64,000 bases of DNA from Verrucomicrobiota bacterium (GTDB lineage Bacteria > Verrucomicrobiota > Verrucomicrobiia > Verrucomicrobiales > Akkermansiaceae). The position numbers and the translations under genes are program-made. The DNA lies in the NCBI GenBank assembly GCA_026397725.1, contig JAPLUI010000318.1:1-64000 (forward strand), given 5' to 3'. Below the pieces are notes generated by a model. That model was given only the letters and a program-made list of their open reading frames with translations. It had not been told where the DNA came from and ran no database searches. Shown here piece after piece: positions 9,962 to 55,424 of this stretch (its first letter is position 1; each line of letters opens with the position of its first letter).

Positions 9962-10008
9962 CCCGCAGCCCCCGCTGACAGCGCGTCACCCGAACCCCCA
10001 ACAGATGC

Positions 10009-10629
10009 TTGGATCTGAAGCTGCTGCGGGGCCGGGAGGTGTCGGTGAAGATCGAAGGGCCGGATGTGGCTGCTATCGAGTTGGTGAAGACGAGCGACAC
10101 CATCCCGGGCAAGTATGAGATGTTCAGCCAGATGGCCACCTTCCCGTTGGAACTCAGCCTGCACACCACGCCCGATGGTGTTAGATCGTATGCGGACTTC
10201 GTCTCCGAACTCGCCCAACTGCGCAATCCGGGCAGCACGCGGCAGGATCTCACGGTCACGGCCGGCGCCCCGCTTCAGGTGGGCGACGTCTCGCAACCGG
10301 CGGAGATTGGGGCCGCGTTCGAGCCTGGAACAGCCTCGCGGGTCAGCTTCACCGGGGCGGAGTTCATCGCCACCTGGAACGCGCAGAGCAAGGAACTCGA
10401 GATCAATGGGGAGAAAACCAGGCCAAGTCCGAAGAACGGTCGTCTGGCGGTCCACATCCTGCCGGACATCCCGTCGCTCGAGGCCGTCACCAACGGCGGG
10501 GAGGCTTATCTCATCAACAGCCGCGACGATCGGAAACCCGGCGCCAAATCCCCGATGGAGATCCGCGCCGAGGGCGGCGACGTGAAATTCAGCCGCGTCG
10601 TGGTCTATCCACTCAAGCCGATTCACTAA
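10009..10629 (+). pseudogene. GH32 fragment lacking the catalytic propeller
   Basis: The open frame (TTG start, 206 residues) has no signal peptide. Its first 45 residues look like the extra N-terminal domain that precedes the propeller in verrucomicrobial GH32 proteins (K-T-S-D-T-I-P-G-K-Y-E-M-F). It then jumps, in frame, to the region after the propeller (Q-M-A-T-F-P-L-E-L-S-L), and the C-terminal beta-sandwich follows to the stop. The whole catalytic five-bladed propeller, with N-D-P-N-G, R-D-P and E-C motifs, is absent. It is truncated at the 5' end as well. Any product would not be a fructan hydrolase; a sugar-binding remnant is possible but unproven. Confidence 0.6.
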
Positions 10630-10638
10630 CCATAAACC

Positions 10639-10866
10639 ATGAAACACCCCATCCACCAATGGCTGCTGGCAATCGCGGCGACCACATTGCCATTCAACCT
10701 GTGCCCGGCACAGGATGCCAAACCCGGCAACGTGCCCGCGCCGCAAGGATTTGAATGCCCGAAGATTGACAAGACGTATGTCTATCTTCCTCACTTTTCC
10801 CCGCGTCGCGGCTGCATCACGGATCTGAACGGCGCCATCCATTTCAACGGCGAGTATCATATATGA
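10639..10866 (+). pseudogene. GH32-like N-terminal fragment, broken after the G-E-Y-H motif
   Basis: The 75-residue open frame has a signal peptide (M-K-H-P-I-H-Q-W followed by a hydrophobic run and C-P-A-Q). It then shows the start of a GH32-type propeller: T-D-L-N-G-A-I-H-F-N-G-E-Y-H, where the D corresponds to the nucleophile of N-D-P-N-G in canonical members. The frame stops two codons after the H, and its TGA overlaps the ATG of the next GH32 gene. The rest of the enzyme, some 400 residues or more, is missing. The same breakpoint recurs at 37.45 and 50.6 kb. Confidence 0.6.
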
Positions 10867-12869
10867 AAGCTCTTGCCACCTGCCGCCTCGCGGCCTTGCT
10901 GATCGCAGCCTTGACATGGCTGACCTCCTTGCTGGTTGCTTCCGCCGCCAATGGCCAGCCGCCCTTTGCTGATGCAGTGGCCGTCTGGCACATGGCCGAG
11001 GCACACGATTCGGCCGGCGCCAACAGCGTCTTGAAGGTCGCAGACCAGGTCAAATTAGGCATCGAATTGCAGGGTGCCGAACGCGAGGCTTCGTTGATTC
11101 GTGGCGGCGACGGGAAAGTGGCCGAACTGACTGGCGGCTGGCTGAATCCCGGCCTCGGCGCGGGCGGCGAACTCAACCTCCGTGGTCAGGCTATGACCTT
11201 GTGCATCCGCCTCCGCGACCCCTCCGGGCAGTGGGGCCGGGGGATTTTTTCCAAGTATGGCGCCGGGCACGATGCGCTGGCCTACAACCTGTTCAGCACC
11301 ACGCTCTCGGGCGACGACGCCGGACCCGACATCGGCTTTGAACTGGGCACCGCCCCCGGTAATGGCATGGTCCAGGTTAAAACATCGGTTGGCCAGCTTG
11401 TAGATCCGGCAGCCTGGCACGACCTCATCGGGCGTTACGACGGCCGGTTGCTGGAGATGTTCGTGGATGGCGTGCGCATAGACCAGCGTCCGGCCAACGG
11501 GGAGTTGCGGCAGAACGAGGAGGCCTGCATCGTGGGCGGGTATTCGGTCGGAGGAAAGGTGCCCAACCCCTTCCACGGCCAGATCGATCATGCCGCGCTG
11601 TGGCAACGGGCTATCACCGACGACGAAATCGTGAAGCTCTCCGGCGGCCAGGAGTTCGTCGCGAAGCAGAAGGAGCTAATCGCGAAGCGGAAGCGGCAGG
11701 TGAGCCAACTGGCCCCTGAGGTTGAGGACTTTCGCAGCGTCCTGTACAGCAAGGACGTGGCGGAGTACTCCAAGGCAACTCTGACCTTCCGGAAGTGGAT
11801 GATCGCCAACGATCCCTTGCGGCCGCTCTACCATTTCACGGGTCCGGAGAGCTGGATCAATGATCCCAACGGCCCCATCTTCTACCAGGGCCAATACCAC
11901 CTCTTCTATCAGTACAGACCCGTCACTGCTGACCGCCCGAACCCGCGCACCACGGGCGGAGGCCATAGCTGGGGCCATGCCGCAAGCAATGACCTGGTGC
12001 ATTGGACGGACTGGCCGGTGGCCATGTGGCCGGACATCCCGCAGGACCGCAACGGGGCCGGTTCCGGCAACACGTTTCACCTGGGGGATTACTGGGAGCT
12101 GCCCTACCTGATTCCGTTAGGCGGCAGGCACGTGCTGATGGTCGGTGCGGGCAATCCCTACTGGGTCGGAACCTACGACACCAAGACCATGCTCTTTACG
12201 CCCGATCGGGCGGAGCCACGCGCGATGGACACCCCATGCTATTACTCCTTCAATCCCAACATGGTTGATGACAAGGGCCCCGGCGGCGCGCCCCGGCGTA
12301 TCATGCACGGCTGGGTTAAAACCGACCCGACGCCGACCGGCAAGGTGCCGTACTGGCAGGGCGCTCACTCCATCCCGCGGGTAATCACTCTCAAGGACGG
12401 GCGTGTATGGCAGGAACCGATCCCGGAACTCCAGACCCTGCGTGCCGACAAGCAATCGTTCAAGAACCTGGACATCACCCCGGAATCCGGCGATTTGCTC
12501 AAGACCGTCAAGGGCGATTCCCTGGAGATCATCGCGACCTTCAAACCGGGCACGGCGCAGCGCTTTGGCATCAAGGTTCGCAGTTCGGCAACGGATGCGA
12601 ATGTGAATGTCTCGGTCTGGATCAATCCCCGCGAACTCACCTTCGGCGCGGCCCAGGGAAGCATGGCCAGCGACTTGAAACCCGGTGACCCCGTGACTTT
12701 GCATGTGTTTGTGGATCGGTCCGTGGTTGAAGGTTACCTCAACGGCAACGCGAGCACCGCGGTCTGCGGGCATGACCCGGCCGCCCAAGGCGTCGAACTC
12801 TTTGCCCAAGGTGGAAGTTGTACCCTGGAGTCGCTAGATGTATGGCGGTTGCGATCCGCCTGGGACTGA
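10863..12869 (+). CDS. LamG-GH32 glycosidase with an internal propeller deletion
   Basis: The 668-residue secreted protein has a signal peptide, then a LamG/concanavalin-like domain (about residues 35-260). A GH32 domain opens at I-N-D-P-N-G-P-I-F-Y-Q-G-Q-Y-H-L-F-Y (about 338-355), which includes the nucleophile Asp. After S-G-N-T-F-H-L-G (about 405) the chain goes straight to Y-W-E-L-P-Y-L-I-P-L, the position of the family's W-E-C-P element. The stretch that normally carries the R-D-P motif is therefore missing, with the frame kept. The C-terminal beta-sandwich (D-R-S-V-V-E near 623) is complete. The family cleaves fructans such as levan or inulin; this copy is probably inactive. Its start overlaps the preceding fragment as ATGA. 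Confidence 0.7.
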   Translation: MKALATCRLAALLIAALTWLTSLLVASAANGQPPFADAVAVWHMAEAHDSAGANSVLKVADQVKLGIELQGAEREASLIRGGDGKVAELTGGWLNPGLGAGGELNLRGQAMTLCIRLRDPSGQWGRGIFSKYGAGHDALAYNLFSTTLSGDDAGPDIGFELGTAPGNGMVQVKTSVGQLVDPAAWHDLIGRYDGRLLEMFVDGVRIDQRPANGELRQNEEACIVGGYSVGGKVPNPFHGQIDHAALWQRAITDDEIVKLSGGQEFVAKQKELIAKRKRQVSQLAPEVEDFRSVLYSKDVAEYSKATLTFRKWMIANDPLRPLYHFTGPESWINDPNGPIFYQGQYHLFYQYRPVTADRPNPRTTGGGHSWGHAASNDLVHWTDWPVAMWPDIPQDRNGAGSGNTFHLGDYWELPYLIPLGGRHVLMVGAGNPYWVGTYDTKTMLFTPDRAEPRAMDTPCYYSFNPNMVDDKGPGGAPRRIMHGWVKTDPTPTGKVPYWQGAHSIPRVITLKDGRVWQEPIPELQTLRADKQSFKNLDITPESGDLLKTVKGDSLEIIATFKPGTAQRFGIKVRSSATDANVNVSVWINPRELTFGAAQGSMASDLKPGDPVTLHVFVDRSVVEGYLNGNASTAVCGHDPAAQGVELFAQGGSCTLESLDVWRLRSAWD

Positions 12870-12939
12870 CTATCAGATTGCCAAGCCAATGACCGGGAGT
12901 ATTTATGGAACAGACCATGAAATCATCAGAGAACAAACA

Positions 12940-14203: not shown

Positions 14204-14300
14204 GAGTGATACGAATTCGGGATTCTGAACAACTTGAAAGATAATTGATTATGAAAGCAAACACAGTAATTGCAGGCATGGTCGCTGCGGGCATCGAACG

Positions 14301-16280: not shown

Positions 16281-16342
16281 ACCGTGGACAAGGAAATGCC
16301 TATCAGTAAGAACCAACCGAATCGCAAGAGAAAGGAATCAAC

Positions 16343-18736
16343 ATGAAAAACACACATCTATTGGCAATCATCAGCGCAGGCCTCGGCATTGCGCACAGTT
16401 CTGTTAGGGCGGCGCCCGCGCCGCAGCGGGGCTTCATCAGTTCCAAGCCCGCCGAGACCTGGGAGCAGGCACTGGTGAGCGGCAACGGCAAGTTCGGCGC
16501 GTTGGTGATGAGCCAGCCGCTGGACGAGACGATCATTTTCAACCACGCGCGGCTGTTCATGCCGATCAATCCGCCGCTGCCGCCGATCGATAGCGCCAGC
16601 CATCTCAAGGAAATCCGCCAGATGTTCGCCGACGGCCACTATCAGCAGGCCTCCGACTTCGTCGTCGAACTGGCTAACAAGGCGAACTACGGCGCCAAAC
16701 GCTGGACCGATCCCTTCATTCCGGCGTTTGACCTGCTGGTGCACATGCAGGCCAAGGGCCCCGTCAAGGACTACCAGCGCTCCGTCGATTTCCAAACGGG
16801 CGTGGCGGCCGTGCGTTGGCAGGATGACCGCGGCGAATTCTGCCGCCGCTTGTTTGTGTCACGGCCGGATGATGTGGTGGTGCTGTCCATCACCGGTCCG
16901 GGCGGCGGCACGGTGGACTGCGATCTGCAGCTCGCCAAGCGGCCTTATGAAGGTGCCGGCGGCTGGTGGCCGGATTGGAATTTCAAGAACGGCATCAAGG
17001 AGGTGGCGATAGCCGCCGCGGACGGCTGCCTGAGTTATCGCAGCAGTTTCAAAAGAAGCTGGCCGGGCAGCCTGCAGGGTTACGAAGGCGCGGCGCGGGT
17101 GGCGGCCAAGGGCGGCAATGCCGTCGTTGAAGGCGACAAGATCGTGGTGCGCGGCGCGGATGAGGTGTTGGTCCTGCTCCGCATCGAACTGCTCAATGAT
17201 TTCGAGCAGTCGCGGATCCCGGCCATGAAACAGGACCTGGGACAAATCCAGGCGGATTTCCCCGGTTTGCTAGAGCGCCACGCGAAGGTCCACGGCGGGA
17301 TTTTCAACCGCGCCCGGCTTGACCTCGGTGGCAGCGCGGCCGACCACGCCCTGACCTCCGAACAACTGATCGAGGGATCACAAGTGGGCAAGCTGTCCCC
17401 GGCTCTGTTAGAAAGGGAGTTCGACGCCTGCCGTTACAACGTCATTTCCAGCAGCGGCGAGTTGTTTCCCAACCTGCAGGGCATCTGGAACGGCACCTGG
17501 GGGCCGCCCTGGTCGGCCGACTTCACCCTCAACGGCAACGTGCAGAGCGCGATTGCCGCCAACCTGTCGGCCAACATGGCCGAGTGCCTGGAACCATTTT
17601 TCCGCTATCTGGAATCGCACCTCGAGGAGTCCCGCGAGAACGCCCGGCGGCTGTATGGCTGCCGGGGCATCCACGTGGCATCGCGTGCCAGCAGTCACGG
17701 CTTGAACAACCACTTCGATGCCACCTGGCCGATGACGTTCTGGACGGCGGGTGCCGGTTGGGACTCCCAGTTCTACTATGACTATTATCTTTACACGGGA
17801 GACCGCGAGTTCCTCAGGAATCGCGCGTTGCCCTTCATGAAGGAAGCCGCGTTGTTCTACGAGGACTTCCTGTTCGAGGGACCCGACGGCAAATATGTGT
17901 TCAGTCCTTCCTACTCGCCGGAGAACAATCCCAAGAACAGTCCGTCACAGGCCTGTATCAATGCCACGATGGACATTTCCGTCGCCAAGGAACTGTTGAC
18001 CAACCTGATAGCCGCCTGCGAGGAACTCAGGACCGACGCGGCTGGTGTCCAGCGCTGGCGTGCCATGCTGACGAAGATGCCGGACTATATGATCGATTCC
18101 GAAGGCGCGGTGAAGGAGTGGACCACGCCGCTGCTGGAGGAAAACCAGGCGCACCGGCACTGCTCGCACCTCTATGCCGTGTTCAACGGCATGCCGGCGG
18201 AGATTGCCTCTAGCGAAAAGCTGAAAAGGGCGTTCCAGGTCGCGTTGGAAAAGCGCTTTGAAATCCGCCGCCAGCAGCACGGCGGCGAAATGGCCTTCGG
18301 TCTCGTGCAATTGGGCCAGGCGGCATCCAGCCTGCGCGACGCGGCGTTGTCGTACGACGTCGTCGATTGGCTGGCCAACAATTACTGGTATCCGAATTTC
18401 GTCACCACCCACAATCCCAAATCACTCTTCAACACGGACCTCTGCGGCGGGTTGCCGGCCATCATCATCAAGATGCTCGCCGAATCGCAGCCCGGTTGGA
18501 TCGAACTCCTGCCCGCGCTGCCGAAACAATGGCCGGCGGGCAGGATTGATGGCGTGCGCTGCCGCGGCCAGATCGAACTGCGCAGCCTCGTCTGGAACGC
18601 GGAGCGAATCACCGTCACCTTGCAGGCGGATCGCGTGCAGCGCGTGGAACTGCGCTCCCCCGGCGCCAAGGGCGTTCGATCCGTGGACCTTCCCAAAGGA
18701 CAGGCCGTGACCGTGGAGATCGTTCGGACCCAATAG
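16343..18736 (+). CDS. GH95-family alpha-L-fucosidase-like protein
   Basis: The 797-residue secreted protein has a signal peptide (M-K-N-T-H-L-L-A-I-I). The N-terminal beta-sandwich opens with E-A/Q-L-V-S-G-N-G-K-F-G-A-L-V, and an (alpha/alpha)6 barrel contains the GH95 landmarks L-Q-G-I-W-N (about 380), S-H-G-L-N-N-H-F-D-A-T-W-P and S-P-S-Y-S-P-E-N-N (about 517). H-R-H-C-S-H-L-Y is near 599, and the C-terminal L-P-A-L-P-K-Q-W sandwich is present. The length matches the family, so it is judged complete. The AAAGGA at 16330-16335 supports the start. GH95 members hydrolyse alpha-1,2-fucosyl (some alpha-L-galactosyl) linkages. It is followed after nine bases by the GH43 gene, so it is probably co-transcribed. 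Confidence 0.85.
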   Translation: MKNTHLLAIISAGLGIAHSSVRAAPAPQRGFISSKPAETWEQALVSGNGKFGALVMSQPLDETIIFNHARLFMPINPPLPPIDSASHLKEIRQMFADGHYQQASDFVVELANKANYGAKRWTDPFIPAFDLLVHMQAKGPVKDYQRSVDFQTGVAAVRWQDDRGEFCRRLFVSRPDDVVVLSITGPGGGTVDCDLQLAKRPYEGAGGWWPDWNFKNGIKEVAIAAADGCLSYRSSFKRSWPGSLQGYEGAARVAAKGGNAVVEGDKIVVRGADEVLVLLRIELLNDFEQSRIPAMKQDLGQIQADFPGLLERHAKVHGGIFNRARLDLGGSAADHALTSEQLIEGSQVGKLSPALLEREFDACRYNVISSSGELFPNLQGIWNGTWGPPWSADFTLNGNVQSAIAANLSANMAECLEPFFRYLESHLEESRENARRLYGCRGIHVASRASSHGLNNHFDATWPMTFWTAGAGWDSQFYYDYYLYTGDREFLRNRALPFMKEAALFYEDFLFEGPDGKYVFSPSYSPENNPKNSPSQACINATMDISVAKELLTNLIAACEELRTDAAGVQRWRAMLTKMPDYMIDSEGAVKEWTTPLLEENQAHRHCSHLYAVFNGMPAEIASSEKLKRAFQVALEKRFEIRRQQHGGEMAFGLVQLGQAASSLRDAALSYDVVDWLANNYWYPNFVTTHNPKSLFNTDLCGGLPAIIIKMLAESQPGWIELLPALPKQWPAGRIDGVRCRGQIELRSLVWNAERITVTLQADRVQRVELRSPGAKGVRSVDLPKGQAVTVEIVRTQ

Positions 18737-25819: not shown

Positions 25820-26830
25820 ATGCTTCATCAGTCAGCAAGGGCTTGTCAACTCGATCAAAGCCGATCCCAACAAACCCTGATCCTTGCCATGTGGCTCGCC
25901 GTGGTTCTATCAGCGACATCGGTGCCGGCAGTCCAGATCTCGGGTCTTTTCGGGGATCACATGGTGTTGCAGAGGGACAAACCGATAGGAGTCTGGGGAT
26001 CTGGCGAAGCGGGCGAGTCGATCCAGGTGAAACTCGCCGCAAACTCGGCATCCGCCATCACGAACGCCGATCCCTGGTATTTCGGGCAGATGGTCCACCA
26101 GGAGACGGGCATCCCCATCGGGATCATCAAGACCAACTGGGGCGGAGCGCTGCCGGAGCATTGGATGTCTCCGGATTCCATGAAAGAAGTCCCGGAGCTT
26201 GCCGCCTTGCATGCTGAATTCTCGCACCAGCTCAAGGTGTACGAAGAGAACCTGCCGCGGAACATGCAGCTTCTCGAGGATTGGGTGCGTGCTGCGAATG
26301 AAGCCAAATCAAAGGGACTTGAAATTCCGTCCATCCCGTTAGCCGGGAACCTGAGCCCGATCTGGGCCCCGCCGGACTACGTCGGCTGCTTCAGCATGTA
26401 CAACGGGATGATCAGCTACCTGACGCGCTTGCCTATCAAGGGCGTGACCTGGTACCAGGGGGAATCGAGCCAGCTCGACGGGCCGCTTTACTACTACAAG
26501 ATGCTGGCGCTGATTAACGGCTGGCGCAAAGTCTGGAATGATCCGGACATGCCCTTTTACTTTGTCCAACTGCCCAACCCGTCCGGGGCCAGCGGCCTGC
26601 CGGAGTTCAATCCCATCGGCATCTGGTATTTCCGCGAGGCCCAGGCCAAGTGCCTGCGGATTCCCCACACCGGGATGGCGGTAACGATCGATGTCGGCGA
26701 GGAGGACCTGCACCCGCGCAACAAGTACGACATCGGGCGGCGCCTGGCCCGGATTGCCCTGGCCAAGGACTATGGCAAGAACATTGAGATTTTCACATTC
26801 AAGCCTCGAACCAACCATTACTTCTTATGA
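25820..26830 (+). CDS. Sialate O-acetylesterase-like protein missing the nucleophile block
   Basis: An AGGAGG at 25808-25813, six bases before ATG 25820, decides the start over ATG 25787. The 336-residue protein has a signal peptide and the usual opening (F-G-D-H-M-V-L-Q-R-D). After S-A-I-T-N-A-D (near residue 80) it jumps in frame to Y-F-G-Q-M-V-H-Q-E-T-G-I-P-I-G. The missing stretch is where the family carries G-D-V-W-L-C-S-G-Q-S-N-M, so the catalytic serine is gone. The later G-V-T-W-Y-Q-G-E and the acid-His element E-D-L-H-P remain. The C-terminus also ends early, just after D-Y-G-K-N-I-E, with an unrelated tail overlapping the next gene (ATGA). Probably inactive. Confidence 0.7.
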   Translation: MLHQSARACQLDQSRSQQTLILAMWLAVVLSATSVPAVQISGLFGDHMVLQRDKPIGVWGSGEAGESIQVKLAANSASAITNADPWYFGQMVHQETGIPIGIIKTNWGGALPEHWMSPDSMKEVPELAALHAEFSHQLKVYEENLPRNMQLLEDWVRAANEAKSKGLEIPSIPLAGNLSPIWAPPDYVGCFSMYNGMISYLTRLPIKGVTWYQGESSQLDGPLYYYKMLALINGWRKVWNDPDMPFYFVQLPNPSGASGLPEFNPIGIWYFREAQAKCLRIPHTGMAVTIDVGEEDLHPRNKYDIGRRLARIALAKDYGKNIEIFTFKPRTNHYFL

Positions 26831-29772
26831 AAACATCAGATCCTTCCGCCAGTCTCATCACATTCCAACGGCTTGTGATCGTCGCCACCATGAGCTTGCA
26901 CGTCGTGGGCGGCACGGCCACTGCCGAGGACCGCGTCACGGTCGTCGACCGCCCGGATGTCTCGCAGAAAAACGCTTGCTATGCAGGCAACCGGGAGCCC
27001 CTGCTGCCAAGTCCGTTGATCAAATTGCCCATCGGCTCGATCAAGCCGAAGGGCTGGCTGCGCAAGCAACTGGAATTGGAGGCAGACGGCTTTACCGGCC
27101 ACCTGACCGAGATCAGCGGCTTCTGCCACCAGGACGGCAATGCCTGGCTGAGTCCGTATGGCGAGGGTGGGGCGTCATGGGAGGAGGTCCCCTACTGGTT
27201 CCGCGGCTACGCGGCGCTGGGCTACGTGTTGGACGATCCAAAGATCATCGCAGAGGCAAAGCCGTGGATCGAGGCGGCGATTGCCACCCAGGCCGAGTTC
27301 GGTTACTTCGGCCCGACGGCCAACCTCAACGCGCCCATCCATCCGCCCGTTCCCGTGGAACTCTTGACCACGGCAGACGGCAAGCCGGGCCTCGACGCGG
27401 AATATTTCGACGGCGTGGATTTCAAGACGTCCAAACTCAAGCGGGTGGACGCCAAGATCGACTTTGACTGGGGCATGAAACCGCCCATCGACGGTTTGAA
27501 GTCAACGGATTACAGCGTCCGTTGGACGGGACGCATCACCGCCAAGGAGACGGGCGACTATGTCTTCTCGTTGTATAGTGATGACGGTGCCAAGCTCTGG
27601 ATCGACAATGTTTTGGTTGTCGACAATGGGGGCTCCCATGCGCCCTTGACGGTCACCGCCAAACAGGCGCTGCATCTAACAGCCGGCCAGCCGCACGACC
27701 TGAAGATTGAATACTTCCAAGGCATCAACGGCGCGGAGATCCGCCTGGGATGGAAGCAACCGGGCGGCACCTATCAGCCCCGGAACATCATTCCCGACCT
27801 GATGCCTAACATGAACATGGTCTATGCCCTCATGTTCTATCAAGAGTACACCGGCGACCAGCGGGTCATCGACCTCCTGAAAAAATACTTCCAGTGGCAG
27901 CTCCAGATCCCCGACAGGATGTTCTTCTCGGGAGGCTGGCAAGTGCCGCGCAACGGCGACAACCTGGACGCCATTTACTGGCTTTACAACCGCACGGGCG
28001 AGCCGTTCCTGCTGGAACTCGCCGCCAAAACCCAGCGCTGCGGCGAATCCTGGATGGGCGTCTCCACGGGCGGCCACAATGTCCAGTTTTGCCAGGGCTT
28101 CCGCAAGCCCGCCCATTTCTATCAGCAGAACAAGGACCCCCAATTCCTGGAAATGCCCGGCAAGAACTGGGATAGCATCATGGGCATCTACGGTCAGGTC
28201 CCCGGCGGGACCTTCGGCGGTGACGAGTTCGCCCGCCCGGGCTACACCGATCCGCGCCAAGCCATCGAGACCTGCGGGTGCGTCGAGATGATGATCTCCG
28301 AGCAGATCCTGACCCGCATCACCGGCGACTTGAAGTGGGCCGACCGCTGCGAAAACGCGGCCTTCAACACGCTGCCGGCCACCATGACCGCCGACATGAA
28401 GGCCCTGCGTTATCTCACCTCGCCCAATCAGGTCAACTCCGACAAGCGCAGCAAGGCACCCGAACTGGCCGACGGCGGCCCCATGCAGGTGATGAATCCG
28501 CACGACCACCGCTGCTGCCAGCATAACAGCGGCGCGGGCTGGCCGTATTACGCCGACAACCTCTGGCAGGCGGCACCCGGCAACGGCCTGGCGGCCATCT
28601 TCTATTGCGCCTCGACGGTCAAGGCGAAGGTCGGCGGCGGCGTCATGGTCATGATCGACGAAGAGACGCATTATCCCTTCGACGGCAACGTGCAGTTTGC
28701 CATCGCCCCCGAAACACCCGTCCGGTTTCCGCTCTACTTGCGGGTGCCGGGTTGGTGCGAGAAGGCACGCGTGACGCTCAACGGGCAAGCGGTGGCCGTG
28801 CAGTCCAAACCGGGCGCCTATCTTCTGATAGACCGGATGTGGCAGCCCGGCGACCGTCTAACGTTGGAGATGCCCATGGAGATTGCCGTGACAACCTGGA
28901 CCGCCAATCAGAACAGCGTCTCGGTCAATCGCGGTCCGCTGACGTTCTCGGTCAAAATCGGCGAGGAATACCGCCGCTCGGGCGGCACCGAGGCCTGGCC
29001 CGCCTGGGAAATCATGCCCACCACGGCATGGAACTATGCCTTGCAGTTCGATCCGCGGAAACTTGAGGCCTCGTTCAAGGTGGTCACGAAAACCTGGCCG
29101 TCTAACAACATGCCGTTCACCCATCAAGGCACCCCGCTGGAAATCCACGCCCAAGCCAGAAAACTTCCCAACTGGAAGGAAGACCATTTGGGATTGGTGG
29201 ACAAACTCCAGCCCAGCCCGGTGAAATCTAACGAGCCGGTCGAAACCGTGACGCTGATCCCGATGGGTGCCGCACGGCTGCGCCTCGCGGCATTGCCGGT
29301 AATCGGAACGGGCCCCGATGCCCGCGAGTGGCAACTGCCCCCCGAGCCGTTGATGTCCTACAGCCGCGGTGGTCCCGACCCTTACGAAGCGATGTTCGAC
29401 GGCAAGATACCCGGGAATTCCAACGACCCCGGCGTGCCGCGCTTCACAACCTACTGCTTCGGTGGCGCGGAACACGGCAAACTGCACTGGGTCCGGCGCA
29501 ACATCGACCAGGCAAAATCCGTCTCGTCGTGCGAGGTGTACTGGGTCGACGAAGCATCGCCTCCGGGCGATGTGCGCCTGCCGAAATCGTGGCGCGTGCT
29601 TCACCTCAGCGGCAAGGAATGGAAGGAAGTCGAGAACCCGAGCGGCTACGGCATCGAGCCCGACAAGTCCAACACCGTCACCTTCAAACCGGTGAAGACC
29701 ACCGCGCTGAGGCTCGATGTGCAGTGCCAGGAGGGTCGCGCCATGGGCATCTATGAATGGCAGATCAAATAG
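26827..29772 (+). CDS. GH127-like beta-L-arabinofuranosidase with a nested PA14 domain
   Basis: The 981-residue secreted protein has the DUF1680/GH127 opening (L-P-I-G-S-I-K-P-K-G-W-L, about 68-79). At about residues 185-320 a PA14-type domain (Y-S-V-R-W-T-G-R-I and S-D-D-G-A-K-L-W-I-D) is inserted inside the (alpha/alpha)6 barrel. The barrel then resumes with M-V-Y-A-L-M-F-Y. E-T-C-G-C-V-E (near 480) and H-R-C-C-Q-H-N (near 560) supply the Glu/Cys residues that in GH127 bind zinc and act as the cysteine nucleophile. A discoidin-like domain related to the front of the GH43 protein ends the chain. All key residues are present, so it is probably active on arabinofuranosides or a related sugar. 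Confidence 0.8.
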   Translation: MKTSDPSASLITFQRLVIVATMSLHVVGGTATAEDRVTVVDRPDVSQKNACYAGNREPLLPSPLIKLPIGSIKPKGWLRKQLELEADGFTGHLTEISGFCHQDGNAWLSPYGEGGASWEEVPYWFRGYAALGYVLDDPKIIAEAKPWIEAAIATQAEFGYFGPTANLNAPIHPPVPVELLTTADGKPGLDAEYFDGVDFKTSKLKRVDAKIDFDWGMKPPIDGLKSTDYSVRWTGRITAKETGDYVFSLYSDDGAKLWIDNVLVVDNGGSHAPLTVTAKQALHLTAGQPHDLKIEYFQGINGAEIRLGWKQPGGTYQPRNIIPDLMPNMNMVYALMFYQEYTGDQRVIDLLKKYFQWQLQIPDRMFFSGGWQVPRNGDNLDAIYWLYNRTGEPFLLELAAKTQRCGESWMGVSTGGHNVQFCQGFRKPAHFYQQNKDPQFLEMPGKNWDSIMGIYGQVPGGTFGGDEFARPGYTDPRQAIETCGCVEMMISEQILTRITGDLKWADRCENAAFNTLPATMTADMKALRYLTSPNQVNSDKRSKAPELADGGPMQVMNPHDHRCCQHNSGAGWPYYADNLWQAAPGNGLAAIFYCASTVKAKVGGGVMVMIDEETHYPFDGNVQFAIAPETPVRFPLYLRVPGWCEKARVTLNGQAVAVQSKPGAYLLIDRMWQPGDRLTLEMPMEIAVTTWTANQNSVSVNRGPLTFSVKIGEEYRRSGGTEAWPAWEIMPTTAWNYALQFDPRKLEASFKVVTKTWPSNNMPFTHQGTPLEIHAQARKLPNWKEDHLGLVDKLQPSPVKSNEPVETVTLIPMGAARLRLAALPVIGTGPDAREWQLPPEPLMSYSRGGPDPYEAMFDGKIPGNSNDPGVPRFTTYCFGGAEHGKLHWVRRNIDQAKSVSSCEVYWVDEASPPGDVRLPKSWRVLHLSGKEWKEVENPSGYGIEPDKSNTVTFKPVKTTALRLDVQCQEGRAMGIYEWQIK

Positions 29773-42051: not shown

Positions 42052-42306
42052 TCGTGGGGTTCCTACTCCCAACTGCCCTCGGCGAACCTGTCGATGCCGG
42101 CCATCGGCAGCCTGCCGACACCGCCGGCCGAGTTCGCGCCCGTCCCGGTGATTGTCAAAATGCAAGTCCTGTTCAGTATTATCTCCCGCAGCAACCACTG
42201 GGGCGGACCCAATGATCCCAAGATCCACTTGATGTTCACCCCGCTCGTGACCCTGCACCATCCCTCCACCGGCAAATCCGATCGACATGCGATGACTCGA
42301 AATCGT
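42052..42306 (+). pseudogene. Possible Verru_Chthon cassette protein A fragment
   Basis: In the frame starting at 42052 about 84 residues read S-W-G-S-Y-S-Q-L-P-S-A-N-L-S, then L-P-T-P-P-A-E-F-A-P-V-P-V-I-V-K-M-Q-V-L-F-S and F-T-P-L-V-T-L-H-H-P. This matches my memory of the middle of Verru_Chthon cassette protein A, a very large protein of a Verrucomicrobiota-specific type IV pilin-like cassette. Only this scrap is present, with neither neighbour of that cassette. It abuts the fragment before it and ends just before the alpha-galactosidase-like gene. Confidence 0.35.
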
Positions 42307-47328: not shown

Positions 47329-50300
47329 ATGAACAACCGGAGAATCGCGCAGCTCGCAATATTGATGGCATCCGCCTGCCTGCCCGGGCAGGCAAGCGCG
47401 ATGGTTTTCAAACCCGAAAAGGGCGCCATGTGGGATCCGTCGGTGTTATGGCACGACGGGAAGTATCTGGGTGAGAAATTCAAGCCCGGGCAGGGCCTGG
47501 TCCTTGAAGGCAAAATCAAGGCGCGGACGTTGGCATCCGGCGGCACTAACAGACCAACGGCTGGTTTTGTCGTTGGGGAAAACGACGGCCAGGCAATGGC
47601 GGTCCAACTGGGCATCGGCCAGCCTGACGGACGCGAAACACACATCGGCCGGCTGGCAACAGGTCCCGATGGAACTCACACATTTACCTCCGAGGACGTA
47701 ACCGGAAAGGGATGCGCCACCGTCACCGGCATTGAAGATGGCAAGGAACATGCCTTCCGCCTGCTGTGCCGGATGGAGATGTTAGAACTCTACATGGATG
47801 ATCTGCTGGTGCAAACCTATATCCACGCCCCGGGGAGCGGCAAAGTCGGTTTCCTGGTGTGCAACGCCCAAGCCGGGTTCAGCGATCAGCGCGCATGGTC
47901 CATGTCCTTCGCTGAAGCGAAGACGGATAAGACGTTGGTCTCATGGGTCACGCTGGCCAATACTACCCAGCAAGGCGGCAGCGCCCTGACGCTCCAGAAC
48001 GGCATGACTTTCGATGGCATCGTCTTCGGCGAGATGGAACCGGGCAAGTGGATGGCCGGCAGCGACTACTTTCTCCGCTCGCAGCGCGACCAACAGGCCA
48101 ACGCCGCGGAAAAGGCGGATGTCAAGGCGCTCGTCCAGATGGCGATCGTCTATCAGGACGATCGGATTTCCCTCTACCGCAACGGCGGGTTATATGTCTC
48201 CTACGCGGCGAATAACATCGACCTGCTGAAGGACAAGGACAACCTGGCGGTCTTCGGCCTGCGGCATCAGGGGGCGGAAAACGGCCGGACCCTGTTAGGC
48301 TCGATCGAGGACGCACGCATCTACAATAGGGCGCTCACCGCCGACGAAATCAGGAAGCTGGAACCTAACAAGAAATCGGCGGTCACTCCATACGCCTGGT
48401 GGACCTTCGAGCCAGGCCAGGAGACCGACCGCATGGGCCGGTTCCCGGTCAATAGTCTGGGCAACGGGGTGAAGATCGAAGACGGCCGCTTGGTGCTGGG
48501 AGTGGAAGGGGCGGCCCTGATTGCGTCGGCGAGGCCCGTGGAGGTTCGGCCCAATCCTGGGGCTGGGACGCCGGTCACGGCGGCCAACCCGCCGCTGAAC
48601 TATCATGCCGAGGGGATGTACCACTGGGACACTTGGTTCCTGCCGCTCGGCGATTCGGTGCATATGTACCATCTCCAGGTGAAACGTCCCGGCAGCCAGC
48701 GGCCCGACGCGGATCATGAGGCCGTCGGCCATGCGGTCAGCAAGGATCTGATCCACTGGCAGGAACAGTCGGTCGCCCTGCGCAAAGGCCCGCCGGGAAG
48801 CTACGACGACGGTTGCCTGTTCACCGCCTATGCCGTCGAACACGAGGGAACCATCTATCTGTATTATTGCAGCAATCACCAGGAGAACGGGCGGGGCCGC
48901 CAAGGCATCTGTCTGGCCACGAGCAAGGACAGTGGTCGGACGTATGAAAAATGCGCGGGCAACCCGATTATCGAGCCGGATCCGAAGCGGTACTACGCGA
49001 TCTCGGAGCCTCCTCCTCCGTTCGGTCACCACGCCCATCCGCACATTGATTGTCGCGATCTCGCCATCGTGAAGGATCCGGCGGGCAATGGGTGGCTGGG
49101 CTATGTGGTCATGCGCCGCAAAGGCCAGCAGGACGCCTTCCACTCCGCGTGCATCGCTTTGTGCCGCTCCAAGGATTTGGTCCGCTGGGAGATAGGCGAT
49201 CCGGTCTGCACGCCGAATCGCTTCAACTGTTTCGAGGTGCCGGACGTGTTCAAGCTGGGCGACAAATGGTATATGATCGCGTTGACCGGCGATGGCTATG
49301 GGCAGACGCAACGCTGGAGCGACCCGGAGATCACCTGCGCCACGGTGGTCTTCGAGGCGGACCGGCCCGAGGGGCCGTTCGAGGAGGTCAAGGCAGGCGC
49401 GCGCACCTTCAAGCCGGTGGGCGACGGCCTGTTTTCCTCCGAACTGCGGTTTGTGCCGCCTGAAGGAGAACGCCTTTACGGCATGGGTGAGAACGCGGTG
49501 AACGCCCCTAACAAGGTGAATCTGAAAGGCTGCATGATCGACCTCTTCCAGCGGCACATGAAAGCCGTCGTGCCTTTTGTCGTCTCCAGCGCGGGCTACG
49601 GGTTCCTCTGGAACAATCCGTCGCTGGGCAAGGTCGAGTTCGGAAATAACAAAACCCGCTGGATGTCCAATGGCTGCAAACAACTCGACTATTTCATCAC
49701 CGCGGGCGATTCCTACGCCGACATCATGGAGAACTATGCGGATGCCACCGGGCACGCGCCGGAGTTCCCTTACTGGGCGTCGGGATTCTGGCAGTGCAAA
49801 CTTCGCTACGAAAACCAGGAGCAGTTCCTGAACGTGGCGCGTGAGTTCAAGCGGCGCAACCTTCCCTTGTCGGTGCTGGTCATTGATTTCCTTCACTGGG
49901 ATATCACGGGCAACTGGAGGCTCGATCCCAAGTGTTGGCCCGACCCCAAGGCCATGGTCAAGGAAATGGACGAGATGGGCTACCGGATCATGATCTCGCC
50001 CTGGACCTTGGTGGACGAGAAGAGCGAGAACTTCGCCTACATGAAGGAGCACGGACTGTTCACCGGTTCCATCAGCGGGAAGATGGACACGGTCGATTTC
50101 ATCGGTCCGAAATACCAATACGACCCGACCAATCCGGAGGCCGCCAAATTCCTTTGGAGCAAATGGAGGCAGATCTTGATGTGCCGGTGGACAAGGCGGG
50201 CACCTATCAACTGGAACTGCACCTTTCCAAAGCCGAGGATTATGGCATCTTCAGCTTCCAACTCGACGACGGCCCCGAGAGCGAGACGATCGACTTTTTC

Positions 50301-50468
50301 ACACCCAAGCTGCAACCCCCGATGCTTCTCAAGCTCAAGCCCGTGACGCTGGCCCAGGGAAACCACCGTCTGAAAATCCTCTATCACGGGAAGAACCCTG
50401 CTTCTAGCAACTCCCTGATTGGCATGGATTGCCTGGAACTCAGCACGAAAACAAGTGATCCAAAATGA
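47329..50468 (+). pseudogene. Mosaic gene: truncated propeller, LamG, GH43-like propeller, GH31 barrel and foreign tail
   Basis: The chain starts with a signal peptide and W-D-P-S-V-L-W-H-D-G-K-Y, the opening of a propeller enzyme, which breaks off there (near 47,460). LamG-like sandwiches follow (about 45-420). A GH43/GH32-like propeller (V-S-K-D-L-I-H-W and V-P-D-V-F-K-L-G-D-K-W-Y) runs to about residue 690. It is fused in frame near 49,410 to the N-terminal sandwich and half-barrel of GH31 (R-L-Y-G-M-G-E, then V-L-V-I-D-F-L-H-W). GH31 stops at S-K-W-R-Q, just before its nucleophile strand. Around 50,180 the frame changes into a C-terminal binding domain (V-P-V-D-K-A-G-T-Y) that nearly repeats the end of the 51.7-kb gene. 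Stop at 50468. Confidence 0.65.
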
Positions 50469-50476
50469 TGAGATGT

Positions 50477-50623
50477 ATGAACAACTGGAGAATCGCACCG
50501 CTTGTCATCCTGATTGCGTCCGCCTGCCTGCCCGGGCAGGCAGGCGCGATGGTTTTCAAACCCGAAAATGGCGCCATGTGGGATCCGTCGATTATCTGGC
50601 ACGACGGCAAATATATATCATGA
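50477..50623 (+). pseudogene. N-terminal fragment duplicating the front of the 47.3-kb mosaic gene
   Basis: The 48-codon frame reads a signal peptide (C-L-P-G-Q-A-G-A) and W-D-P-S-I-I-W-H-D-G-K-Y, nearly identical in protein and DNA to the first 50 codons of the gene at 47329. It stops two codons after the Tyr, and its TGA overlaps the ATG of the next GH32 gene. Both copies of this N-terminus therefore break at the same residue but join different sequences. It is the remnant of a duplicated propeller enzyme. Confidence 0.65.
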
Positions 50624-51651
50624 AGATAAAAACGACGGCTTTGTGGATCGGTTTGGCAATCCTGACGGTTTGCCGTGCGGACGCGGCGGAGGAGGCCAAG
50701 CCGGATCTAACATCCGGCAACCCCGAGGCGAAGTATCGCTCCGTCATCAGGAGCCAGGACAAGGCGGTCTTCGGTGATGCCGCGCTGGGGTTGAGGCGCT
50801 GGATGGAGGTGCGCGATTTGCAGCGCCCCATCTATCATACCATGGGCCCCATGGGTTTCACCTTTGACGTCAACGGGCCGATTTATCACGACGGCAGGTA
50901 TCACCTTTTCTATCACAAGAGTTCGTTCGTGTTCAAGCCGGACAAGGAGGATGCGGAGATCCTCGACGTCTCTCCCCATTTCTATGCACCGAATCCTCAC
51001 ATGATAGACAACAAGGGACCGGGCGGTTCGCAGCGGCGGTTGATGTTCGGTTGGGTGCGCGGGGGGCAGACGCCCACGAAAGACGTTCCCTACTGGGACG
51101 GAAACCACTCGCTTCCGCGCGTCCTGACACTCGTATCTAACAAGCTGATCCAGGAACCCATCCCGGAATTGCAGGTTCTCCGCCACGGACACATGCAGCT
51201 AACGAATCGCCTGATCGAATCCTCCACTCCCGGATTGCTCAAGGACTTCACCGGCAATGCGTTGGAGGTGATCGCGTCGTTCGATCCGCAAGGCGCCACC
51301 GCCAAGCGCTTCGGTGTGAAACTGCGGATGTCCAAGGACGGCAACGAGCAGACCGTGGTTTACTATGAACCGGCGAGCGGCCGGTTCGGCGTGTCGGGGT
51401 CGGTCGTGGACGGCGAGATCAGCGACCATGCCGACTTTCCGGCCGGCCGGAGGGTCACGCTGCACATCTTCCTCGACCGCTCCGTGGTGGAAGTGTTTGC
51501 CGCCGGGCGCGTGATAACCAAACGCACGTATTCCGATCCGACCAGCCAGGGGCTGGATGTTTTCAGCGATGGCGGGAGCGTGAAGCTGGATGTTCTTGAT
51601 ATCTGGCGGATGAAAAGCATCTGGGATCAAGGAAGCAACGGCAAATCATGA
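50620..51651 (+). CDS. GH32-like protein with most propeller blades deleted
   Basis: The 343-residue protein has a signal peptide, a 60-residue spacer, and F-D-V-N-G-P-I-Y-H-D-G-R-Y-H-L-F-Y-H (about 86-103), the GH32 opening with its Asp. It then jumps in frame to Y-A-P-N-P-H-M-I-D-N-K-G-P-G-G, the last blade. The R-D-P and E-C motifs are gone, so catalysis is not expected. The C-terminal sandwich (D-R-S-V-V-E-V-F near 288) is complete and closely resembles that of the 10.9-kb protein, including Q-E-P-I-P-E-L-Q. Family members are usually 450-650 residues. Confidence 0.7.
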   Translation: MKIKTTALWIGLAILTVCRADAAEEAKPDLTSGNPEAKYRSVIRSQDKAVFGDAALGLRRWMEVRDLQRPIYHTMGPMGFTFDVNGPIYHDGRYHLFYHKSSFVFKPDKEDAEILDVSPHFYAPNPHMIDNKGPGGSQRRLMFGWVRGGQTPTKDVPYWDGNHSLPRVLTLVSNKLIQEPIPELQVLRHGHMQLTNRLIESSTPGLLKDFTGNALEVIASFDPQGATAKRFGVKLRMSKDGNEQTVVYYEPASGRFGVSGSVVDGEISDHADFPAGRRVTLHIFLDRSVVEVFAAGRVITKRTYSDPTSQGLDVFSDGGSVKLDVLDIWRMKSIWDQGSNGKS

Positions 51652-51692
51652 TTCGAACCCAGTAAACGAGAAAGGCACCCCATACGAAAACC

Positions 51693-54600
51693 ATGAATCC
51701 CATGAAACCAACCTCTATCATTGCCCTGCTGTTGCTGTCACCGTTGGCCGCGCTGCACGGTGCTGATGGGCGGCCGTCAGCGGAGGCCGCAAGACCACAC
51801 GTGCTGCGCAATGCCACAATCAAGCTGACGGTTTCGCCAGGCGGCTGCCTTGAGTCGGTCGAGAACATTCCCGCCGCGGAGACCTACACCTTCAATTCCG
51901 ATGTGTTCACCGTGGACACGGATCTCGGGGTGTTTTCTAACAAAGAGGCAAGGCCGATCCGTGTGACTGTCGACGGGCAGCGGATTGAGTTTTGTTATGA
52001 GTTCCGTCCGGCTTCGGGTGCGGACAAGGTGGGTGTCAGTCTGATCTACACGCTGGGGCTGGAGAGCGCGTTTTTCCGCCGATGCCTGAAGATCACCAAC
52101 CCCACCCCGTTGCGCCTGAAGAACCTGGTTCTCGCGAATACGGCTTTTGCCAAACCGGCCACCGACTGCGTTCACTACGTCACCTTCATCGCCGCGCCCA
52201 CGGTGGAGTTCATCCGTTTTGACAAGGGCGGGCTTTTCACCGGCATCGAGAATCCGTATTTCAAGGCGGACCTATCAGAACAGGGGGTGGCGCTGGGTTT
52301 CAAGCCGGCCCTGATTTTGAAGCCCGGCGAGGGTTACACGAGCGAGCCGCAGTTCATGGGAGTTTGCACCAAGTCCGGGGTGATGATCGAGGACAGCGGC
52401 CGCGACTTCCGCTATAACTCGAACGCATCCGGCTACAAACCCCTCGACCGCCATGAAACGCGGGCGATGCGGGCCTTCGCCCTGGATTACCTGGCACCGG
52501 CGCAAACAAAATTCCTCAATATCAACTACCAGTTCTTTCACCCGCTGCCGCAAATGCCGCGCTCGGAGAATGACAAGGATTACTTCACCAAAACCATCGA
52601 CACATTTGCCGCGATCGGCGGGGACATGATCATCTTCAAACCCCTGCATCCCTATTCGAAGCCCACTGCGGAAAGAGCGTTTTGGGATGTGGTGCCGGAC
52701 GACGCCAATCACCCCGCCCGCCAGATCTGTGACTATGCCAAAAACAAAAACATTTCCTACGGCTTCTATATGGGCTGCGCCGCGCATGGCGGGGAAGGCG
52801 ATGCCGCAGGTTTGAACTTCCGGCCCGACAAGCCGGAATGGAAAAAGAGCGATGACGCCGGCCGCCGCGCACCGGACAACTGCCTGGGCTGCGATGACTT
52901 CTACGAGTGGTGGTTCACCGTGCAGGATAACACCATCCAAAAATACAACCTGAGCAACTGGAGTTGGGATCCCAGCCTCGGCTCCGGCATGAATTGTTAT
53001 GATGAAAGCCACGGGCATTTCGCCAACCAAGGCGGCTACAAGGGCTGGCGGCGCTGCATCGAACTGATGGCGCGCATGAAGGCGGCGAAACCTGGCCTGT
53101 TCATCCAGGGGTTCTACGGCACCAAGAACTTCGGCCTGTGGGGACTCAAGAACGTGGATCAACATGAGGTCTATAACGAGCAGGCCATGTGTGTCAGCAC
53201 CCGCCACAACCAGATCAGCGATGACCGCCAGAATGCCGACGGCCTGCGCTTCCAGAACAACTGGAGCATGCGCTTCCGTTTTTCCCCGGCGGTCATGGGT
53301 CATGCACTAACACACCGGGTCAGTGAGGGCGGCTTCGACCCCGAGTTGGTCAAGGCCTGGGATTATGATGGCTGGCAATATGCCGTCATGTCGTCCTTGG
53401 CGGTGTCGGGCTCCATCATGCCGACAATCCTGCCCTATCAGACGGATCTGGTTCCGGGCTTGGCCGGATTCTATCAGAAATGGCAGCGCTGGGCCAAGGA
53501 GAACTTCGCGTATGTGAACTGCACTGAGCCCTTCGGCGAACAAGTCCAGCCCGGTGCGGTTGACGGTTATGCCCGCATCAAGGGCGAGCATGGCTTTGTC
53601 TTTTTGTTCAATGGCAATCCGCGGCCCTCCCGGATCACGTTTGAAGTCGGTGATGAGATCAACCTGCAGGCCAAGGGTGATTACCAGTTTGCGGAAATCT
53701 ATCCGTCGGATAAGGAAATGCTGGTGCTGGATGACAACGGCAAGTCCGTCTTTGCCCTCGGTGAGATAGCGAGCATTACGGTCCCCGCCAACAGTTGTTA
53801 CCTGCTGGAACTGAACAAAGTCACGCGGCAGGACAAGCCGGTCCTCGTCGGCAGGGTGGGGGAGGTCGAACTAACAGACGGACGGATGGCCGTCACCGGC
53901 ATCACGGGCAAACCGGGAGCGGCGGCATCGATCCGCGTGCGCGTCGCCAAGCCGGAGGCGGTGCAAAGCGTCACCGTCAACGGCATCGCGCAGAAGTTCA
54001 CCAGATCGGCGCGGGAAATCCACATCGATTTGCAGTTTGCGGGCGACCCCTATGTGCGTGCACTGGATGTCTGGACCCAGCCCGACGGCAAGCGCTTTGA
54101 TTTTCCCAATCCAACGGCACCGCCCGAGTTCAAACTCACGACATCATTCATGGTCCATGCCGAAGTCAGGCAACTGCTGGAAAGGGCGAAACCGAAGAAC
54201 TTCGGCGAGATGGATGCGAAGATTGCCGGTTGGCAGACACCTGATGGGAAACGAAACGCTTCCTACAGTTACCACAACTTCATCTGCGAGCGGCCGTCAC
54301 GACTCTGGCTGATCATTCCATTTTTGACAGGCACTGGTGTCGAGGCGACGCTCAATGGCGGAAGGATTGATCCACTGGATTGGGACCGGCCTTCCAGCAG
54401 CGCATATGCCGACGTGACCGAGTTTGTTAGATATGGGGAGGCCAACACCCTTACGCTGACCCTCAAAGGCATGGGCCCCAACCAGTTCATGGGGCCGTTC
54501 CTCCTGTATCCTGAGGAAGCCGCCACGGACCGTGTGCTGCCCACGCCAGTTCTAACGGACAAGCCGCTCTGTTATACGCATTCACTGGCGCCCGCCCTGC

Positions 54601-55424
54601 AACCCCGCTACCGCAAGGACGGGGGGCCGAAGGTGGTCGAGACGAAGATGATGGACCATGTGACCTTGAGCGAAGCCGCCGAACTGCGGGTCAAGCTGGA
54701 CCTGCCGCCGGAAAGGATCAGGCGGGTGATGTATTTCGATTCAGGGTTTACCTGGATGGGCCAACATGATCTCGGATACCATCAGGAGGCCCAATGCTGG
54801 ACGGCCATGGTGGCTCCAGGCCCGCGGGCTGCCATCCAGGAAAACGATTTCATCTACGTCTGGGCGGAAGGTGCCGACGGCTTGCGCAGCGACTACCATC
54901 CGGTCAAGGTGGGTTGGGATTTCACAACGCAACCTCGCAACGGGAAGGCGGTTGCCGCCGCGCCCACCGCCGAGCCACCCAAGAAGGTTCCGGGCGCGAT
55001 CGAAGGCGAGTCCCTGAGAGTGCAATCCAAGAGCAACGGCAGGGTCGAGCCGCAGGACATGGCGCAATACGGCAACCACTGGAGTGGCAATCGCCAGCTC
55101 GTCTGGTGGGGGGGATTGAACAAGGGCGACCAACTGGTTCTGGAAGTGCCGGTGGACAAGGCGGGCACCTATGAACTGGAACTGCACCTGTCCAAGGCCG
55201 AAGACTATGGCATCTTCAGCTTCCAACTCGACAATGGTCCCGCGAGCGCTGCCATGGATCTCTACAATCCGAAACTGCTAGGCCCGTCCATCGTCACACT
55301 CAACCCCCCCAAGCTGGCAACAGGCAATCATCACTTGTCCATCGTCTGCCACGGGAACAACCCCGCCTCTACCAATACCTTGATCGGATTGGATTGCGTG
55401 ATCTGGAACCTACGGGAAAAGTAA
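51693..55424 (+). CDS. Large secreted glycosidase-like protein with C-terminal binding domain
   Basis: The 1243-residue protein has a signal peptide and an N-terminal sandwich. A TIM-barrel-like region (about 250-620) has G-G-D-M-I-I-F-K-P, S-Y-G-F-Y-M-G-C-A and C-Y-D-E-S-H-G-H, resembling alpha-galactosidase-like or melibiase-related enzymes. Several sandwich domains follow. The last 130 residues match the tail at 50.2-50.47 kb (V-P-V-D-K-A-G-T-Y-x-L-E-L-H-L-S-K-A-E-D-Y-G) and resemble the domain that closes DUF2961-type proteins. No internal gap was seen. The exact family is uncertain; it is the last full enzyme of the locus. Confidence 0.6.
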   Translation: MNPMKPTSIIALLLLSPLAALHGADGRPSAEAARPHVLRNATIKLTVSPGGCLESVENIPAAETYTFNSDVFTVDTDLGVFSNKEARPIRVTVDGQRIEFCYEFRPASGADKVGVSLIYTLGLESAFFRRCLKITNPTPLRLKNLVLANTAFAKPATDCVHYVTFIAAPTVEFIRFDKGGLFTGIENPYFKADLSEQGVALGFKPALILKPGEGYTSEPQFMGVCTKSGVMIEDSGRDFRYNSNASGYKPLDRHETRAMRAFALDYLAPAQTKFLNINYQFFHPLPQMPRSENDKDYFTKTIDTFAAIGGDMIIFKPLHPYSKPTAERAFWDVVPDDANHPARQICDYAKNKNISYGFYMGCAAHGGEGDAAGLNFRPDKPEWKKSDDAGRRAPDNCLGCDDFYEWWFTVQDNTIQKYNLSNWSWDPSLGSGMNCYDESHGHFANQGGYKGWRRCIELMARMKAAKPGLFIQGFYGTKNFGLWGLKNVDQHEVYNEQAMCVSTRHNQISDDRQNADGLRFQNNWSMRFRFSPAVMGHALTHRVSEGGFDPELVKAWDYDGWQYAVMSSLAVSGSIMPTILPYQTDLVPGLAGFYQKWQRWAKENFAYVNCTEPFGEQVQPGAVDGYARIKGEHGFVFLFNGNPRPSRITFEVGDEINLQAKGDYQFAEIYPSDKEMLVLDDNGKSVFALGEIASITVPANSCYLLELNKVTRQDKPVLVGRVGEVELTDGRMAVTGITGKPGAAASIRVRVAKPEAVQSVTVNGIAQKFTRSAREIHIDLQFAGDPYVRALDVWTQPDGKRFDFPNPTAPPEFKLTTSFMVHAEVRQLLERAKPKNFGEMDAKIAGWQTPDGKRNASYSYHNFICERPSRLWLIIPFLTGTGVEATLNGGRIDPLDWDRPSSSAYADVTEFVRYGEANTLTLTLKGMGPNQFMGPFLLYPEEAATDRVLPTPVLTDKPLCYTHSLAPALQPRYRKDGGPKVVETKMMDHVTLSEAAELRVKLDLPPERIRRVMYFDSGFTWMGQHDLGYHQEAQCWTAMVAPGPRAAIQENDFIYVWAEGADGLRSDYHPVKVGWDFTTQPRNGKAVAAAPTAEPPKKVPGAIEGESLRVQSKSNGRVEPQDMAQYGNHWSGNRQLVWWGGLNKGDQLVLEVPVDKAGTYELELHLSKAEDYGIFSFQLDNGPASAAMDLYNPKLLGPSIVTLNPPKLATGNHHLSIVCHGNNPASTNTLIGLDCVIWNLREK

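What the first reader, a model, noticed from the sequence alone, without database searches (positions are those of the whole stretch)
47329..50468. GH43-to-GH31 in-frame fusion that stops before the GH31 nucleophile
A propeller enzyme and a GH31 enzyme are joined near 49,410 and the GH31 half ends at S-K-W-R-Q, immediately before the catalytic strand, then runs into a foreign binding domain in another frame. It is the most composite gene in the window.
Basis: partly seen in the sequence, partly recalled or inferred. Interest (0 to 1): 0.5.

Follow-up and report, generated by a model that had tools for sequence, protein, structure and literature searches.

The report
Sugar-enzyme array collapsed by chained deletions
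The odd gene is a patchwork of at least five sugar-degrading enzyme fragments, most likely the remains of a row of once complete genes that shrank through many separate deletions, so it is probably a decaying gene rather than a new kind of enzyme.

Summary
The composite gene is in the sequence: one open frame (47329-50346, 1005 aa) made of five or six fragments. It holds a signal peptide with the first strands of a GH43-like propeller, a second domain of that same parent gene, a LamG_3 domain, a GH32/43-type propeller cut near its last blade, and the first half of a GH31 that stops before the strand carrying the nucleophile. It then runs out of frame into a domain that is not foreign: it is the GH31 gene's own C-terminal domain, reached by a 1,024-bp deletion. 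Intact parents lie on contig C115 of the same genome and in relatives. No other searched genome carries the chain (73 of the genus; 386 of the order for the propeller-GH31 part). The GH31 fragment shows ordinary purifying selection, so the joins look young. A frame-blind scan of 1.70 Mb finds similar clean internal deletions in 5 genomes of the genus; 23 of 30 intragenic ones keep frame against 3 of 15 intergenic, and short repeats are enriched at joins. Codon-phased microhomology explains most of that bias. Best reading: recent illegitimate deletions eroding a CAZyme array. Assembly error for this contig cannot be excluded without reads. Interest is modest.

The parts
47329..47466 (+). signal peptide and first strands of a GH43-like propeller; remnant of a C115-type 998-aa gene
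   Evidence: 75% DNA identity to C115 9474-9348; 87% to a second copy at 50477-50614, both copies ending at the same codon
47453..47909 (+). second domain of the same 998-aa gene, reached by a 918-bp in-frame deletion
   Evidence: 72-73% to C115 8442-7980; deletion length modulo 3 = 0
47911..48530 (+). LamG_3 domain of a LamG+GH32-type gene
   Evidence: 71% to C115 11844-11225, 74% to C197; PF13385 1.1e-11, profile 18-150/151
48625..49391 (+). GH32/43-type propeller cut short near its last blade
   Evidence: 72% DNA to C212; PF00251 covers profile 40-197/307 here against 23-265/307 in C212
49396..50173 (+). GH31 fragment: end of N-terminal domain and first part of the barrel
   Evidence: 89% DNA to C115 13979-13208, 90.5% to G079; PF01055 2-142/328
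50174..50468 (+). C-terminal domain of the same GH31 gene, out of frame with the preceding ORF; own frame ends at 50468
   Evidence: 82% to C115 12183-11923, 83% to G079; frames
50477..50614 (+). second remnant of the 998-aa gene N-terminus, cut at the same codon
50620..51651 (+). GH32 gene with its central propeller missing (534-bp in-frame deletion at 50909-50918)
   Evidence: PF00251 only 235-307/307, PF08244 3-157/158
10863..12869 (+). LamG+GH32 gene with a 303-bp in-frame deletion at 12076 (same type of join elsewhere in the window)

Best explanation
The composite gene is what is left of a same-strand array of secreted glycosidase genes (998-aa-type gene, LamG gene, C212-type propeller gene, GH31 gene, a second 998-aa-type or GH32 gene) after a series of illegitimate deletions. 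Each deletion joined a piece of one gene to a later piece of the same or the next gene. Because the genes point the same way and their codon periodicity puts short direct repeats in the same codon phase, many such joins stay in frame and give chimeric ORFs. One join (50,173) did not, and ends the ORF inside the GH31 gene. Shown: the segments, their parents, the missing pieces, the frames, low dN/dS of the GH31 piece, and the same class of deletions elsewhere in the genus. Inferred: that the deletions happened in the cell by short-homology or slippage-type recombination, that the loss was stepwise, and that the product is a decaying pseudo-enzyme (half a GH31 barrel, an incomplete propeller).
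For: Pieces and parents. Parents complete: GH31 2-326/328 plus C-terminal domain, GH32N 1-307/307. GH31 intact in G079, G019, G073. Missing middles have no second close copy in the 12.56-Mb genome. GH31 piece: dN 0.037-0.062, dS 0.37-0.45 against four homologues; 7 synonymous and 4 nonsynonymous window-only changes; no stop inside the four coding pieces tested. Same deletion class elsewhere: C265 GH31 remnant joined at a shared ~15-bp word; G061, G019 and G072 cases, with chains leaving short islands. Intragenic joins 23 of 30 in frame, intergenic 3 of 15. Microhomology mean 2.34 bp against 0.89 expected, and >=4 bp in 9 of 35 joins against 1.2 expected. Pairs of 4-8-bp repeats inside 578 ORFs are in phase 47-66% of the time. 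No Ku (PF02735) match in G000, so classical NHEJ is unlikely.
Against: At the two window joins that could be measured (50,173 and 50,918) the strict test found 0 bp of microhomology (divergence of the parents blurs it). The remaining window joins were too diverged or joined different genes and were not measured. Many large deletions without any point inactivation is unusual for slow decay. No two genomes were found sharing one deletion: two chains were searched in 73 genomes. The C115 gene order is not the same as the order of window pieces, so the ancestral array is inferred. The regions scanned were picked around glycosidase, sulfatase and esterase hits, not at random.
Confidence: 0.68

Rival explanations
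1. Assembly or library artefact: the contig joins fragments of complete genes, as chimeric molecules or collapsed scaffold gaps would, and the real chromosome has intact genes.
For: The genome is a 584-contig assembly of 12.56 Mb with 5.48% contamination, about twice the size of the larger relatives. The chain is private to this contig. The coding pieces tested carry no internal stop. Two window joins show 0 bp microhomology.
Against: Frame-blind artefacts should be in frame one third of the time; intragenic joins are 23 of 30, intergenic 3 of 15. The missing middles are not found elsewhere in the assembly. The same type of join occurs in MAGs of other projects. In C423 the broken copy is elsewhere and the window copy is the intact one.
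Confidence: 0.22
2. A functional secreted multi-domain enzyme or binding protein: the signal peptide, LamG and propeller are kept on purpose and the GH31 piece is a structural tail.
For: Signal peptide-like start, frame kept through four joins. The acidic residues D24, D167 and E226 of the propeller are invariant in all 5 aligned proteins (their catalytic role is recalled). LamG followed by a GH32 propeller is a real architecture (C115 9616-11904).
Against: Propeller and GH31 barrel are both cut. The predicted model of residues 411-760 has mean pLDDT 52 and is below 50 throughout the GH31 part. The ORF ends by frameshift. No relative shares the order.
Confidence: 0.07
3. A store of gene fragments used for recombination with intact paralogues, as silent cassettes are in antigenic variation.
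For: Fragments 71-89% alike to intact paralogues lie in the same genome; two N-terminal copies are cut at the same codon.
Against: No conserved cassette borders were seen; the breaks differ from gene to gene. Recombinases and flanking repeats were not searched for specifically.
Confidence: 0.03

Closest known systems
Short-direct-repeat deletions and pseudogenes of Haloquadratum walsbyi (PMC3119063; abstract and passages seen)
   Same: Clean deletions between strains at 4-20 bp direct repeats in a genome with over 300 pseudogenes
   Different: There indels between two close strains; here chains of deletions inside glycosidase genes, with parents 70-97% alike
Microdiversity from illegitimate recombination in E. 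coli, S. aureus and S. pyogenes (PMC2884548; passages seen)
   Same: Short-homology deletions as one source of intragenic variation, much of it frame-preserving
   Different: There small segments within species; here large losses that remove catalytic cores
GH31 alpha-xylosidase, e.g. MeXyl31 (PDB 5zn6)
   Same: Window residues 684-946 align to it at 4e-80
   Different: The window copy stops before the catalytic strand
GH32/GH43 five-bladed propeller enzymes
   Same: PF00251 7.3e-18 and PF04616 4.6e-10
   Different: Last blade incomplete; joined to GH31

Membership tests
GH31 | complete TIM barrel (PF01055, 328 positions) | tested here: not met
   2-142/328 in the window against 2-326/328 in C115
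GH31 | catalytic nucleophile strand | tested here: not met
   The match ends at SKWRQ; C115 continues NYVDLGIRTFWLD; that the D is the nucleophile is recalled
GH32/GH43 propeller | whole five-bladed propeller | tested here: not met
   PF00251 40-197/307 against 23-265/307 in C212; join at 49,391
GH32/GH43 propeller | three catalytic acids | tested here: inconclusive
   D24, D167, E226 invariant in 5 of 5 proteins of alignment A2; their assignment as the catalytic acids is recalled
LamG_3 | complete domain | tested here: met
   18-150/151
Short-direct-repeat deletion | direct repeat shared at both parent ends | tested here: inconclusive
   Enriched in the genus set (9 of 35 joins with >=4 bp) and seen at C265, but 0 bp at both measurable window joins
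Pseudogene | loss of an essential part | tested here: met
Pseudogene | relaxed selection on the remnant | tested here: not met
   dN/dS about 0.1-0.17 for the GH31 piece: the loss is too young to show, or an artefact
Natural multi-domain family with this order | same order in another genome | tested here: not met
   Apart from G000 itself, none of the 73 genus genomes; none of the 386 order genomes for propeller-GH31

The most novel reading that the evidence does not exclude
In this genus, chains of short-homology deletions inside same-strand enzyme arrays act as a protein-shuffling engine: codon-phased microhomology keeps the frame by default, and some of the resulting secreted chimeras (window ORF, G072 C707 four-island ORF, G000 C57 ORF) are retained as working mini-proteins rather than as decay products.
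Probability: 0.1. Interest if true: 0.65.

Novelty: new member of a known kind. Interest (0 to 1): 0.3.

Why it matters
It shows how long, clean-looking ORFs in polysaccharide-degrader genomes can be debris of several genes, which misleads annotation of enzyme content. It also gives a measurable reason why such debris stays in frame: short repeats inside codon-biased genes are usually in codon phase (47-66% for 4-8 bp). If the chimeras are retained products, the genus would be a natural test of deletion-driven domain shuffling in bacteria.

Tried and rejected
N-stripped scaffold or random misjoin: weakened by the frame bias but not excluded for this contig. Selection for frame (operon polarity): considered, but codon-phased microhomology alone gives 47-66% in frame for 4-8 bp; 23 of 30 exceeds that at 4 bp (p about 0.001) and not at 8 bp (p 0.15), so no selection is claimed. 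Hand counts in my notes (13 of 17, 25 of 33) were replaced by the scripted count. Genome-wide excess of broken genes in G000: the sulfatase search (5 genomes, list truncated) showed partial copies in relatives as well, so no excess is claimed. Alignment A1 came out misaligned and was not used. The structure model of residues 411-760 (mean pLDDT 52) is too poor for a fold search, and none was run. A palindrome in the signal-peptide region occurs only in the two window copies. Literature: searches listed no paper on this case; two papers were read in passages.

Full report
What is there. ORF 47329-50346 (+) translates to 1005 aa without a stop. Searching the window's own genome (G000, 12.56 Mb, 584 contigs, window = contig C68) with this protein and with the DNA breaks it into pieces with different parents: 47339-47465 with C115 9474-9348 (75%); 47453-47909 with C115 8442-7980 (72%); 47911-48530 with C115 11844-11225 (71%) and C197 (74%); 48625-49391 with C212 (72%); 49396-50173 with C115 13979-13208 (89%); 50174-50434 with C115 12183-11923 (82%). 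Downstream follow 50477-50613 with C115 9484-9348 (75%), 50718-50918 with C115 7940-7740 (80%) and 50909-51696 with C115 7215-6429 (82%).

The parents. C115 carries complete genes: GH31 with its C-terminal domain (11901-14423, 840 aa), LamG+GH32 (9616-11904, 762 aa) and a 998-aa gene with an N-terminal GH43-like part and a complete GH32 (6494-9490). The same GH31 barrel is intact in G079, G019 and G073 (PF01055 2-326/328). So the domain after SKWRQ is not foreign; it is the far end of the same gene, 1,024 bp further on. The middles that the window lacks are not present as a second close copy in G000.

What is lost. The window GH31 keeps PF01055 positions 2-142 of 328 and ends before the strand that reads NYVDLGIRTFWLD in C115 (the D as nucleophile is recalled). 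The propeller keeps PF00251 40-197 of 307 against 23-265 in its C212 relative, so it too is cut near its end. The GH32 gene that follows (50620-51651) lacks the centre of its propeller (PF00251 235-307 only). A model of residues 411-760 was poor, mean pLDDT 52, with the GH31 part below 50.

Age. The GH31 piece shows dN 0.037-0.062 and dS 0.37-0.45 against four homologues, and window-only changes are 7 synonymous and 4 nonsynonymous, like the other branches. None of the four coding pieces tested there has an internal stop. The joins are therefore recent compared with the split from the parents, or artificial.

Is it a known arrangement. Apart from G000 itself, none of the 73 genus genomes searched has a match that spans these joins. 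One C170 paralogue of G000 aligns a little past the propeller/GH31 join at 49%; I read this as a gapped extension into its own last blade. For the propeller-GH31 part alone, only the window itself spans both halves among 386 genomes of the order. LamG followed by a GH32-type propeller does exist naturally (C115), so the join at about 48,560 may be an older architecture.

Is it a lone case. No. A DNA-only, frame-blind scan for abutting matches whose subject ends lie far apart was run on 116 sequences, 1.70 Mb, from G000 and relatives (first versions). It gave 66 join positions; with deletions of at least 200 bp and self-matches removed, 30 intragenic and 15 intergenic joins remain. Genomes with intragenic ones: G000, G019, G056, G061, G072. 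Examples: the window's own GH32 gene at 12,076 (303 bp); G061 C614 (792 bp); a G019 sulfatase at C155 14,201 (486 bp); and chains in G072 C707 and G000 C57 that keep one open frame through several short islands. A G000 C265 GH31 remnant joined at a shared word of about 15 bp is outside this count because one of its matches is too short. In C423 it is the other contig that is broken and the window gene that is whole.

Frame and mechanism. Intragenic joins are in frame in 23 of 30, intergenic in 3 of 15. Without the window the intragenic figure is 19 of 25; with both sides at least 80% identical it is 11 of 17. One third is expected for blind joins (p 1.5e-6 for 23 of 30). But repeats inside these genes are themselves in codon phase: 39% for 2 bp, 47% for 4, 57% for 6, 66% for 8 (578 ORFs). 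Against 57% the excess has p 0.02, against 66% p 0.15. Short matching repeats are enriched at 35 measurable joins, intragenic and intergenic together (mean 2.34 bp against 0.89; at least 4 bp in 9 against 1.2 expected). So short-homology deletion explains most of the in-frame result without selection. Part of the excess may also be ordinary in-frame length difference between paralogues. Against this reading, the two window joins that could be measured show 0 bp. G000 has no Ku match (7 of 73 genus genomes do), which speaks against classical end joining. Short-repeat deletions are known from Haloquadratum (PMC3119063, abstract and passages) and from E. coli and others (PMC2884548, passages).

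Conclusion. It is best explained as a same-strand glycosidase array collapsed by several recent illegitimate deletions, leaving an in-frame chimera that the deletion at 50,173 threw out of frame. The main doubt is whether this contig is correctly assembled; reads decide that. It is a new example of a known kind of event, with a locally high density.

Noticed in passing
window 10863-12869, join at 12076: LamG+GH32 gene with a 303-bp in-frame deletion relative to C115 and C99.
   Followed up: yes
window 42094-42263: 170 bp, about 85% identical to part of a gene in G019 C155 and G047 C9, appears as an isolated remnant upstream of the 42343 gene.
   Followed up: partly
window 47329-47466 and 50477-50614: Two copies of the same N-terminus (87% identical) are both cut at exactly the same codon, and both carry a perfect palindrome in the signal-peptide region that was found nowhere else in the 1.70 Mb held.
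   Followed up: partly
window 26822-27237: 416 bp, 89% identical to G061 C148, with no such match to that contig on either side.
   Followed up: no
window 54971-55424: The 1243-aa gene 51693-55424 ends in a copy of the GH31 C-terminal domain (83% DNA to C115), which its C115 relative lacks.
   Followed up: partly
L077 (G000 C265) 10800-12220 and 15839-17605: A field of gene remnants: pieces of another secreted enzyme, a tiny GH31 remnant, a gene cut after about 12 codons, and half a LamG fused in frame to a GH43-type propeller.
   Followed up: partly
L135 (G072 C707) about 4000-4650, minus strand: An open frame of roughly 240 aa made of islands of an esterase gene and the end of a neighbouring gene, ending at that neighbour's stop.
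   Followed up: partly
G000 whole assembly: 12.56 Mb against 1.5-7.0 Mb for the other 72 genomes of the genus listed: very large for this group, or a merged bin.
   Followed up: no
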